64,000 nt of DNA from Colwellia sp. PAMC 20917 (GTDB taxonomy: Bacteria > Pseudomonadota > Gammaproteobacteria > Enterobacterales > Alteromonadaceae). The position numbers and the translations under genes are program-made. Positions within the stretch are counted from its first letter, which is position 1. Every line of letters starts with the position of its first letter. The stretch covers positions 3,162,001-3,226,000 of the forward strand of contig NZ_CP014944.1 of the NCBI RefSeq assembly GCF_001767295.1, read 5' to 3'. This document shows, piece by piece, positions 1 to 55,963 of this stretch. The notes under the pieces are model-generated. The model was not told the DNA's origin. It ran no database searches and saw only the letters and a list, made by a program, of their open reading frames with translations.

Positions 1-351
1 GTCTTTCCATTCCCATACTTTATCAATAAAAGCTTCACGACCGTAATCGTGACGAGTTTTATCTTCTTCGGCAGCAATTTTACGTTCTACCACCATTTGT
101 GTGGCAATACCCGCATGGTCCATTCCGGTTTGCCATAAAGTATTTTTACCTTGCATACGCTGATAACGAATTAAGGTATCCATAATAGTTTGTTGGAACG
201 CGTGTCCCATATGCAAACTACCGGTAACGTTTGGTGGTGGTATAGCAATGCTATAGCCATCTCCTTCACCTGTAGGGCTAAAATAACCTTGCTCTTCCCA
301 ACTTTGATAAAGAGACTGTTCGATTTCTGAAGGATTGAATGTTTTTTCCAT
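1..351 (-). CDS. valS: Valine--tRNA ligase, N-terminal part (runs off the window)
   Basis: Charges tRNA-Val with valine in the cytoplasm; a class I synthetase. The reverse strand from the ATG at 351 reads [20 protein letters not shown] and continues into [15 protein letters not shown], the class I HIGH-type ATP-binding signature in its valyl/leucyl form, then [15 protein letters not shown]. About 117 residues are visible; the rest lies beyond position 1. It follows holC and pepA on the same strand, the usual gammaproteobacterial pepA-holC-valS order, with 21 bases between the holC stop and this start. Identity is clear from the motifs and context. Confidence 0.96.
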
Positions 352-53562: not shown

Positions 53563-54182
53563 ATGTCGTTTATTAAACCTTTTCTTATTTCATTGTTCAG
53601 CATCATACTCCTCTCAAGTTGTGCTACATCACCGCCAAAAAATCCTGAAAATATCTGTGAAATTTTTCGTGAACACCGTGATTGGTATTTTGCTGCCAAA
53701 GAAGTGCGTGAGCGTTGGGGAGTGCCTATCCATGTGCCCATGAGTATGATGTTCCAAGAAAGTTCATTTAGAGCCGATGCTTTGCCTCCTAGAGACTATT
53801 TACTGGGTTTTATCCCTTGGGGTCGGGTAAGTACTGCTTACGGTTACTCTCAAGCAAAAACGATGACTTGGGATGATTATATTAAAGAAACAGACAATTC
53901 TGGCGCCGACCGTGATGACTTTGACGACGCTATCGATTTTATGGGTTGGTTTATATTTAAAACACAGAAAATTAATAAGGTCTCTAAATGGGATGCTTAC
54001 AACCAATATTTAAATTATCACGAAGGTTGGGGGGCTTTAAGCGTCGCTCTTATAAACAGAAGCCTTGGCTGGCAAAAGTCGCCCGCAAAGTCGATAACCG
54101 AGCACGGCGCTACAGTAGCCAATTAAAAAGCTGTGAAGCAGATTTAAATCATGGTTGGTTGTGGCGGTTATTTTTTGCTTAA
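53563..54182 (+). pseudogene. Lytic transglycosylase-like (SLT) lipoprotein, frameshifted
   Basis: Predicted outer-membrane lipoprotein that would cleave peptidoglycan glycan strands. Start MSFIKPFLISLFSIILLSSC gives a lipobox LSSC; the SLT-like core has MMFQESSFRADALPP (catalytic Glu in ESS) and AYGYSQAKTMTW. Frame one stops at 54126 after a non-family tail. At GGTTGGGGGGCTTT (about 54025) a -1 shift gives HEGWG then GFKRRSYKQKPWLAKVARKV and RARRYSSQLKSCE, continuing to a stop at 54180. So one G of a G6 tract is probably missing, or the frame is shifted in decoding. Intact length would be about 206 residues. Confidence 0.75.
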
Positions 54183-54472
54183 AGTTTATTTGTCGATATA
54201 ACTGTCATTAGCTTTGTGAGCATGGTCTTTTATAAAAAGGTCATGCTTTTTAGTTTTAGGGCTAAATTAAAGCCAATGATTGTTCACCGAGTTACATAAC
54301 ATAAGTAGTGATAACATGTAGCATAAATAGTGCTTATATAATCTCTTTTCAGTAAAAATGCTCGCAAAGGCTTATGTTTCTTATTATAAAAATTATTGTA
54401 AAAAAAACTTCATAAATATTAAAGAAAGGCATTGCATTATTTGAGGGCTGGCTCTTATTGGGCTGTGTTTTG
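54183..54472. other. AT-rich intergenic stretch
   Basis: No gene. Contains GGTCTTTTATAAAAAGGTCATGC near 54224-54246 and an A/T-rich run at 54376-54440 that lies next to the DnaA-box cluster. Nothing else is recognised. Confidence 0.4.
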
Positions 54473-54563
54473 TTATCCACAGAAATTGTGGAAAAATCAT
54501 TATTAGATCCGGTGGTGTGAATAACTCTGTGAATAACTTTGTGGCTTGCTGCTATTATCCACA
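54473..54563. promoter_or_regulatory. Cluster of five DnaA-box-like sites
   Basis: TTATCCACA (perfect box, plus) at 54473-54481 and 54555-54563; TTTTCCACA (minus) at 54487-54495; TTATTCACA (minus) at 54516-54524 and 54528-54536. All fit TTWTNCACA. The region is between convergent genes, so it is not a promoter. It resembles DnaA-titrating or DnaA-reactivating loci (datA, DARS) more than a gene regulator. An AT-rich stretch lies to its left. Confidence 0.6.
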
Positions 54564-54615
54564 AAAGAAGAAATAAGAGTATCTAAAAGTAATTGTTACT
54601 ATGATAAGAATTTCA

Positions 54616-54679: not shown

Positions 54680-55963
54680 CTACTTTTCTTTATCATTATC
54701 GAGATAAAGTTCAGGAAGGATCCTAACTGTTTTGATCATATTATCTGAGACATCAACAATTTCTAAAGGGTAACCTGCTATACGTACACTTAAATTAGCT
54801 TCTGGTATATCTTCTAAATATTCGATAATTAAGCCGTTTAATGTTTTAGGACCATCGGTAGGGAAATTCCATGTCATTTCTTTATTAATATCCCTTACCG
54901 TAGCACTACCATCGACTAAATAACTGCCATCAGGTTGTGCATTAACCTCTTCACTTGTCGTCGGCGTCATCGTTGTTGTAAAGTCACCAACGACTTCTTC
55001 CAAAATGTCTTCTAGGGTTACTAAGCCTTGAATGTCACCATATTCATCGACGACTAAGCCTAATCGTTCTTTAGCATGCTGAAACTTTAATAGTTGCACA
55101 TTCAGGGTGGTGCCTTCGGGAATAAAATATAATTCTTTTATTGCTCTGATTAAGGTGGTTTTAGTAAATTGATTTTTGAATAAGAGTTTCAAGGCATCAC
55201 GTAGATGAATATAACCGACAACATCATCCATATTGTCTCGATACAATAAAACACGGGTATGGTTAGATTGTGCCAGTTGTTTTTGAATCTTTTTCCAGTC
55301 ATCATTAATATCAATGCCCACTAACTCATTACGTGGGATCATAATATCTTCAACGGTCACTTTCTCTAAATCAAGAATACCCACCAGCATATTTTGATCG
55401 CGCTCGGGTAGCATAGCTCCAGAGTCATTAACAACGGTTCTAAGTTCTTCTGAGCTTAAACTGTGATGAACACGTTGTTCAGAACTTACACCGATTAATA
55501 GCAATAAACCGTTAGTGATCCAATTTACAGCAACAACTAAAGGGAACAGCACCTTCAATAAAACCGATAAGACAACTGAGCTTGGAAAAGCGATTTTTTC
55601 AGGGTATAGCGCCGCTAATGTTTTTGGGGTTACTTCAGAAAATATTAGCACAACAAGTGTTAATGCAATGGTTGCAACTAACACCCCCATGTCACCAAAT
55701 AAACGTAAGCCTATAATAGTGGCTATCGCAGAGGCCGCAATATTAACAAGATTATTGCCAATGAGTATTAAACCAATTAAACGATCTGGACGCTCTAATA
55801 ATTTACTGACGCGTTTAGCACCTTGATGATTTTGTTTTTCTAAATGACGAAGTCGATAGCGGTTAAGCGACATAATGCCAGTTTCAGATCCTGAAAAATA
55901 GGCTGATAGAATAATTAGAATGCCAAGAATGGCAAAGAGCATTTCCGTTGATATGTTGTCCAA
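54680..55963 (-). CDS. corB: CNNM/CorC-HlyC family membrane protein (CorB type)
   Basis: Membrane protein with cytoplasmic CBS pair and transporter-associated domain, tied to magnesium/cobalt handling. The 427-residue product has a DUF21 membrane domain (residues 1-185, SAYFSGSETGIMSLNRYRLR and EVTPKTLAALYPE), two CBS domains (about 200-330, VEDIMIPRNELVGID and VVDEYGDIQGLVTLEDILEE) and a CorC_HlyC domain to the end. The frame starts at a TTG; an ATG at 55942 is a fallback start. Followed upstream by ypjD and ffh in the usual block (E. coli yfjD-ypjD-ffh). Confidence 0.9.
   Translation of the reverse strand: MDNISTEMLFAILGILIILSAYFSGSETGIMSLNRYRLRHLEKQNHQGAKRVSKLLERPDRLIGLILIGNNLVNIAASAIATIIGLRLFGDMGVLVATIALTLVVLIFSEVTPKTLAALYPEKIAFPSSVVLSVLLKVLFPLVVAVNWITNGLLLLIGVSSEQRVHHSLSSEELRTVVNDSGAMLPERDQNMLVGILDLEKVTVEDIMIPRNELVGIDINDDWKKIQKQLAQSNHTRVLLYRDNMDDVVGYIHLRDALKLLFKNQFTKTTLIRAIKELYFIPEGTTLNVQLLKFQHAKERLGLVVDEYGDIQGLVTLEDILEEVVGDFTTTMTPTTSEEVNAQPDGSYLVDGSATVRDINKEMTWNFPTDGPKTLNGLIIEYLEDIPEANLSVRIAGYPLEIVDVSDNMIKTVRILPELYLDNDKEK

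What the first reader, a model, noticed from the sequence alone, without database searches (positions are those of the whole stretch)
54473..54563. Five DnaA-box-like sites packed into 91 bases between convergent genes
Two perfect TTATCCACA boxes flank three inverted sites (TTTTCCACA, TTATTCACA, TTATTCACA). The sites lie between the 3' ends of two convergent genes, so they are not a promoter operator. Clusters of this kind in E. coli are oriC, datA (titrates DnaA and promotes its ATP hydrolysis) and DARS1/2 (reactivate DnaA). dnaA, mnmG and dnaN are not near, so a chromosomal DnaA-control locus is more likely than oriC. The AT-rich stretch at 54376-54440 also keeps an origin-like reading open.
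Basis: partly seen in the sequence, partly recalled or inferred. Interest (0 to 1): 0.72.

Follow-up and report, generated by a model that had tools for sequence, protein, structure and literature searches.

The report
DARS-like DnaA-box element in Colwelliaceae
Between two genes of a Colwellia-type marine bacterium sits a short, strongly conserved cluster of binding sites for DnaA, the protein that starts chromosome copying; its layout resembles the DnaA-recharging sites of E. coli, but it lies at a new place, lacks one standard site and carries an extra array, and what it does is predicted, not shown.

Summary
The five boxes are real, at the stated coordinates, and far beyond chance. They form the core of a conserved element of about 140 bp (54429-54571). 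A sequence model finds it in 40 of 118 family genomes, 18 genera; by name, in 56 of 61 Colwelliaceae-type loci and 0 of 19 loci of other groups that share a neighbouring gene. It is not oriC, which lies about 785 kb away. Boxes 1 and 2 form a head-to-head pair with the spacing of DARS boxes I and II of E. coli; boxes 3 and 4 form a 12-bp tandem array reminiscent of the DARS2 flank. DARS box III is missing in both orientations. The own genome and 13 of 14 other family genomes tested keep a DARS1-type core near uvrB. A DARS core near rppH, the E. coli DARS2 place, was found in 0 of 14 element-bearing genomes. The element lies at 20.3 +/- 3.8% of the contig from dnaA (n=12); E. coli DARS2 lies at 20.6%. 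Best reading: a DARS-type site filling the DARS2 role, perhaps derived from a DARS1 copy. DnaA binding and nucleotide exchange are inferred; a datA-like or titration role stays open.

The parts
54429..54571 (.). whole conserved element (region of model R1)
   Evidence: alignment A1 of 14 sequences; model R1 strong in 40 of 118 family genomes
54431..54436 (+). ATTGCA block at the left edge of the element, function unknown
   Evidence: ATTG invariant and the following C nearly invariant in A1
54460..54466 (+). DARS1-like left-flank motif (GGGCTGT here; GGGCTnG consensus) at -13 to -7 of box 1
54473..54481 (+). DnaA box 1, perfect TTATCCACA (one half of the head-to-head pair)
54487..54495 (-). 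DnaA box 2, TTTTCCACA, head-to-head with box 1 with a 5-bp spacer as in DARS boxes I and II
54496..54515 (.). 20-bp linker; its length falls in two narrow classes in relatives (19-21 or 28-29 bp)
54516..54524 (-). DnaA box 3, TTATTCACA; first unit of the 12-bp tandem array
   Evidence: R consensus in 51 of 56
54528..54536 (-). DnaA box 4, TTATTCACA; second unit, weaker in most relatives
54555..54563 (+). DnaA box 5, perfect TTATCCACA; present in 23 of 56 relatives
53563..54126 (+). convergent neighbour: SLT_4 domain protein (PF19489)
54680..55963 (-). convergent neighbour: CNNM/CBS/CorC_HlyC protein (corB-like; gene name recalled)

Best explanation
The element is a non-coding DnaA-control site of DARS type that in Colwelliaceae most likely does the job of DARS2. 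Proposed mechanism: ADP-DnaA binds boxes 1 and 2 head to head, their AAA+ domains touch, ADP is released and the apo-DnaA leaves to take up ATP. The tandem array (boxes 3-4, sometimes box 5) would recruit further DnaA in place of the missing box III, or shut the site off when ATP-DnaA is high. Shown: the anatomy, its conservation and lineage, its distance from dnaA, a DARS1-type core near uvrB in the same genomes, and no DARS core found near rppH. Inferred: DnaA binding, nucleotide exchange, timing of initiation, and the roles of the array and of the left-flank motif.
For: Head-to-head pair with 14-bp start spacing as in E. coli DARS1 and DARS2; this arrangement is called characteristic of DARSs and functionally essential in PMC10380432 (passages). 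In the own genome the DARS-core pattern (up to 3 mismatches) fits two places: this element and a site 1.7 kb upstream of uvrB. Of 26 R1 hits outside the family that were fetched, 10 have rppH/mutH and 3 have uvrB beside them; the other 13 have neither. Among the three E. coli loci R1 scores DARS2 highest (20.6 bits; datA 12.4, DARS1 12.1). Model R2, built from 12 rppH-mutH loci outside the family, finds the element in 24 of 24 element-bearing genomes, as best hit in 17. A DARS core near rppH in 0 of 14 element-bearing genomes, mutH-rppH gaps 124-290 bp. Distance from dnaA 20.3 +/- 3.8% (n=12). DnaA is 76% identical to that of E. coli; a Fis relative is present in 7 of 7 genomes tested.
Against: Box III is absent: 3-8 mismatches at its place in the 56 relatives in + orientation and 4-7 in - orientation, against 1-3 in DARS1 loci and 1-4 in DARS2 loci. 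The reciprocal test is partly circular: 9 of the 12 loci in R2 had been found through R1. In the own genome R2's best hit is the uvrB site, the element second. No IHF or Fis site is shared at a fixed place by most relatives; the window has no Fis consensus match and two one-mismatch IHF matches, both right of box 5. Ungapped comparison of the flanks with DARS2 is not significant; the array match needs a shift. The array also resembles part of datA. 12 of 14 element-less family genomes lack a DARS core near rppH too, so this is not a simple one-for-one replacement. One element-bearing genome, G012, showed no DARS1-type core by the rule used.
Confidence: 0.5

Rival explanations
1. datA-like or titration site: the cluster sequesters DnaA, or promotes hydrolysis of DnaA-bound ATP on the tandem array.
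For: 12-bp head-to-tail array; R1 matches the E. coli datA box 2 stretch at 12.4 bits; three strong boxes suit titration.
Against: The most conserved part is the head-to-head pair (97% identity), described as a DARS feature; in the window no IHF match lies between the boxes; about 20% from dnaA rather than the 10% of E. coli datA.
Confidence: 0.3
2. A DnaA-responsive regulatory or end-of-transcript element for the two flanking genes, without a cell-cycle role.
For: It lies between convergent 3' ends, and a convergent corB-like gene follows in 53 of 56 relatives; the five Colwelliaceae-type loci without the element also show no corB-like gene in the stretch.
Against: Not a promoter position; no RNA family match near its gathering score; a similar core recurs beside other genes, at rppH-mutH and uvrB, in other families.
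Confidence: 0.08
3. A second or cryptic replication origin.
For: Stretch of 83% AT beside the boxes.
Against: oriC-type boxes at mioC-mnmG, about 785 kb away; R1 scores that region only 12.2 bits.
Confidence: 0.02

Closest known systems
E. coli DARS2 (rppH-mutH region)
   Same: Head-to-head pair with 5-bp spacer; weak boxes upstream of box I (E. coli TTATGTGCA at -44 and TTATAAACA at -32; here TTATTCACA at -41 and -29); in two f6 loci (L126, L128) a TGTGGATAA at -68, as here; about one fifth of the genome from oriC.
   Different: Other genomic place; no box III; no shared IHF/Fis sites found; array boxes stronger here and set 3 bp nearer.
E. coli DARS1 (bioD-uvrB) and DARS1-type cores near uvrB in other families
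   Same: Head-to-head pair; the left flank carries the GGGCTnG motif at the same distance.
   Different: No box III; not near uvrB; the own genome has a separate complete DARS1-type core there.
E. coli datA
   Same: Cluster of DnaA boxes including a stretch like the tandem array.
   Different: No head-to-head core under the rule used; depends on an IHF site between boxes (PMC4585315, passages).

Membership tests
DARS (DnaA-reactivating sequence) | Boxes I and II head to head with 14-bp start spacing | tested here: met
   definition from passages of PMC5742627 and PMC10380432
DARS (DnaA-reactivating sequence) | Box III 12 bp after box II, same orientation | tested here: not met
   3-8 (+) and 4-7 (-) mismatches in 56 relatives
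DARS (DnaA-reactivating sequence) | ADP release from DnaA | not testable with these tools
   needs biochemistry
DARS2 | Place between rppH and mutH | tested here: not met
   the element lies between an SLT_4 gene and a corB-like gene; a core near rppH in 0 of 14 element-bearing genomes
DARS2 | IHF and Fis sites at fixed spacing | tested here: inconclusive
   consensus scans only: a palindromic Fis-consensus match at -100 in 7 of 56 relatives, not in the window; an IHF-like match at +239/+240 in 16 of 55, inside the corB-like gene
DARS2 | Chromosome position about one fifth from oriC | tested here: met
   20.3 +/- 3.8% from dnaA, n=12, against 20.6% in E. coli (E. coli oriC coordinate recalled)
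datA | IHF site between essential boxes | tested here: inconclusive
   scans of relatives covered 250 bp on either side of the boxes, not the stretch between them; in the window no IHF match lies between the boxes
oriC | Origin gene neighbourhood | tested here: not met
   oriC-type boxes between mioC- and mnmG-like genes, about 785 kb away

The most novel reading that the evidence does not exclude
The element is a duplicated DARS1 that took over the DARS2 role in Colwelliaceae, with the parts of DARS1 divided between the two copies: the uvrB copy kept box III and lost the GGGCTnG left flank, the new copy kept the flank and lost box III, replacing it with a head-to-tail array. A reactivation site without box III would be a new DARS design.
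Probability: 0.28. Interest if true: 0.68.

Novelty: new variant of a known kind. Interest (0 to 1): 0.55.

Why it matters
In the passages read here DARS1 and DARS2 are described for E. coli and for relatives that have them at similar places. A lineage in which no DARS core was found at the DARS2 place, and which carries a conserved DARS-like site elsewhere without box III, would show which parts of the design are essential, and that such a control site can sit at a new address at a similar distance from oriC.

Tried and rejected
Rejected or led nowhere: oriC and second origin; non-coding RNA (two matches far below their gathering scores, a Plasmodium and a Listeria family); hidden gene (only short frames; the longest through the boxes, 71 aa on the minus strand, was not pursued). 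A wrongly spaced DARS pattern (9 instead of 8 bases between the halves) was repeated correctly. I first took the E. coli stretch at L053:3952 for the DARS2 core; box count, spacing equal to DARS1 and two adjacent IHF-like matches point to L053:3636. This is my inference; the figures of the papers were not visible. IHF/Fis scans were inconclusive. Flank comparison with DARS2 without gaps was negative.

Selection effects found on checking: 9 of 12 loci in R2 came from R1 hits, so one search is not an independent test (only L053, L145 and L147 were reached otherwise); for this I lowered the main confidence from 0.55 to 0.50 (and moved the datA-like rival from 0.27 to 0.30). Several loci of the DARS1 set lay at R1 hits or in genomes chosen after R1 hits; the flank test was repeated without f21 and with only the 7 loci whose uvrB site was no known R1 hit. 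It stays significant with those 7 (p 0.0002), but 4 of them outside f18 alone give p 0.064, and the window copy alone p 0.13; for this the novel case went from 0.30 to 0.28. The DARS1-type core of G012 was not found by the rule used. Paper searches that named this group or its relatives found nothing on the site; one search searched DARS with Vibrio cholerae.

Full report
Observation. With at most one mismatch the window has 33 boxes against 20 +/- 4.5 in shuffles; ten Markov sequences of 2 Mb each with the composition of the window never held more than 3 in 91 bases. The boxes lie in a 553-bp intergenic region between convergent genes, an SLT_4 protein and a CNNM/CBS/CorC_HlyC protein.

Genome context. 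The window is G000:C1:3162001-3226000 of a 4,683,314-bp contig. dnaA is at 2425273-2426604. Between mioC-like and mnmG-like genes (names from my reading of the frames) lie two perfect boxes 73 bp apart, which I take as oriC, about 785 kb from the element. Of 49 perfect boxes in the genome, three pairs lie within 200 bp: the oriC pair, a pair upstream of a polA-like frame, and boxes 1 and 5 of this element.

Conservation. blastn with 201 bp finds a match in 20 of 59 genomes searched. Fourteen of the matches were aligned; 13 of the 14 carry the SLT_4 gene and 13 the corB-like gene within the fetched stretch. A sequence-only model, R1, has strong matches (E below 1e-15) in 40 of 118 family genomes (41 matches, 18 genera), the next match being 1e-8. 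In an order-wide draw of 295 genomes strong matches occur in 8, each of the same family; the others are 4.5e-7 or weaker. With names: 80 loci (of 104 found) around relatives of the SLT_4 protein were fetched. I count 61 as Colwelliaceae-type (Colwellia, Cognaticolwellia, Thalassotalea, Thalassomonas, Litorilituus, Pseudocolwellia and a Colwelliaceae MAG by title, plus three 'Alteromonadaceae' records, L226, L246 and L278, that I placed there because they carry the element); 56 of 61 hold it, or 53 of 58 by title alone. The five misses (L235, L251, L257, L271, L276) show no corB-like gene in the stretch. Of 19 loci from other groups (Aliidiomarina, Glaciecola, Alkalimonas, Psychromonas, Aliagarivorans, Pseudoalteromonas, Aeromonadales) none holds it; 11 of these 19 do have the corB-like gene in the stretch.

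Anatomy. The 23-bp pair is near invariant (mean pairwise identity 97%, against 63% for -50 to -1, 51% for -90 to -51 and 34% for -150 to -91). The gap between box 2 and box 3 is 19-21 bp in 37, 28-29 bp in 19, and 22-27 bp in none of 56. Box 3 is an R box in 51 of 56, box 4 in 4 of 56 (56 of 56 within 2 mismatches), and box 5 is present in 23 of 56.

Comparison with known sites. I took the E. coli K-12 regions for DARS1, DARS2 and datA by coordinates. DARS cores have box I, then II after 14 bp in opposite orientation, then III after a further 12 bp, which agrees with the description in PMC5742627 (passages). The element has I and II but no III in either orientation. Of 26 R1 hits outside the family that I fetched, 10 have rppH and/or mutH beside them and 3 uvrB; 13 have neither (L105, L107-L111, L113, L114, L116, L117, L119, L122, L124; four of these, L108, L110, L116 and L122, were seen in short stretches only). 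Within the E. coli loci the best R1 hit is DARS2 (20.6 bits; datA 12.4, DARS1 12.1); in the same run a site of G035 scored higher (22.1) and the own oriC region 12.2. Model R2, made from 12 rppH-mutH loci of four families outside the window's own, finds the element in 24 of 24 element-bearing genomes tested, best in 17; in the own genome it is second after the uvrB site (27.2 against 29.2 bits), followed by a weak place at 530830 (E 0.015). Since 9 of those 12 loci had been found through R1, this is consistency, not an independent test. The best evidence free of that circle is the E. coli DARS2 hit itself and the fixed distances: in E. coli weak boxes at -44 and -32 from box I, in two f6 loci a TGTGGATAA at -68, here boxes at -41, -29 and -68.

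Where DARS1 and DARS2 are in these genomes. A core-pattern search of the own genome gives two places: the element and 4054617, a complete I-II-III core 1.7 kb from uvrB. Within 1.5 kb of uvrB 11 of 30 genomes have a core, none of the 15 family members; in 17 further upstream stretches 13 of 14 family genomes have one, and G053, but not G012, G040 or G047. Within 1.5 kb of rppH a core is found in 0 of 14 element-bearing genomes, 2 of 14 element-less family genomes and 2 of 2 others. mutH lies 124-290 bp from rppH in the 14 (aligned ends). A more diverged core, or one elsewhere, is not excluded.

Position. In 12 genomes with the element on a long contig it lies at 15.1-29.0% of the contig length from dnaA, mean 20.3, sd 3.8. 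uvrB is at 40.9 +/- 4.8 (n=9) and rppH at 24.6 +/- 5.2 (n=11); E. coli DARS2 20.6, DARS1 32.9, datA 10.1. Shared gene order alone could hold the element there, since its neighbours move with it.

Possible origin. The left flank (-45 to -3) of the 56 elements resembles that of DARS1-type sites near uvrB: with 11 loci outside the family (f21 left out) z 3.75, p 0.00004; with the 5 element-less family genomes z 3.40, p 0.00026. With only the 7 outside loci whose uvrB site was no known R1 hit, p 0.0002; with 3 such family loci, p 0.0012; with E. coli and two f18 loci alone, p below 0.00002; with the 4 non-f18 loci alone, p 0.064. The DARS1-type sites of nine element-bearing genomes show no such resemblance (z -1.22, p 0.89; p 0.52-0.79). 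Single elements are weak in this test (window alone p 0.13 and 0.03). The shared motif is GGGCTnG at -13 to -7. In the other orientation the array matches the DARS2 flank only if shifted (0 of 3000 permutations reached it, at shift -8, which mixes two spacing classes). So the element combines a DARS1-like side and a DARS2-like side; a DARS1 duplication with divided losses is one reading, convergence another.

Machinery. DnaA is 76% identical to E. coli DnaA, with long near-identical runs in the C-terminal part. A Fis relative is present in 7 of 7 genomes tested. A partial DnaA-family hit of 90.7 bits at 544314 may be Hda (name inferred). IHF and Fis sites: the window has no Fis-consensus match in the intergenic region and two one-mismatch IHF matches at 54605 and 54629. 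Among relatives a palindromic Fis-consensus match lies at -100 in 7 of 56, and an IHF-like match at +239/+240 in 16 of 55, but the latter is inside the corB-like gene. Overall IHF-like matches on the left are not in excess (16 of 56, shuffles 25.7), on the right they are (32 of 55, shuffles 16.7).

Verdict. A real, lineage-specific, conserved DnaA-box element; most likely a variant DARS filling the DARS2 role. Membership in DARS in the strict sense fails on box III; working like a DARS remains the best-supported mechanism. Nothing about this element was seen in the paper searches made (listings only); the original DARS paper (Fujimitsu 2009) was not read. Of papers I saw passages of PMC4585315, PMC4245941 (its Introduction in full), PMC8682772, PMC10380432, PMC5742627 and PMC6090056, and the outline and two sections of PMC12371093.

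Noticed in passing
G000:C1:2310666-2310817 (L025): Two perfect and one consensus DnaA box within 152 bp, upstream of a frame that reads like the start of PolA (gene name from reading).
   Followed up: no
L053:3604-3612 and alignment A2: A weak box at -32 from DARS2 core box I: TTATnAACA in 11 of 12 rppH-mutH loci of four families, TTACCCACA in the other; 9 of the 12 loci had been found through R1. Not named in the passages read of the DARS2 papers.
   Followed up: partly
left flank of DARS1-type sites, e.g. L054 about 1595-1601: GGGCTnG motif 7-13 bp before box I shared by DARS1-type sites of several families, not seen in those of nine element-bearing genomes.
   Followed up: partly
L053, L138, L140, L142 (f18 type); L126, L128, L134, L136, L139, L147 (f6): These rppH-mutH regions carry two core-like sites 315-336 bp apart in the same orientation.
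   Followed up: no
G000:C1:1688, 17681, 342886, 1756356, 2928524: Five places with the same score for a partial DnaA-family match in a 265-aa frame, perhaps copies of an IstB-type transposition ATPase (name inferred).
   Followed up: no
L227-L231, L247, L277: A palindromic Fis-consensus match exactly 100 bp left of box 1 in 7 of 56 relatives, outside the SLT_4 gene.
   Followed up: no
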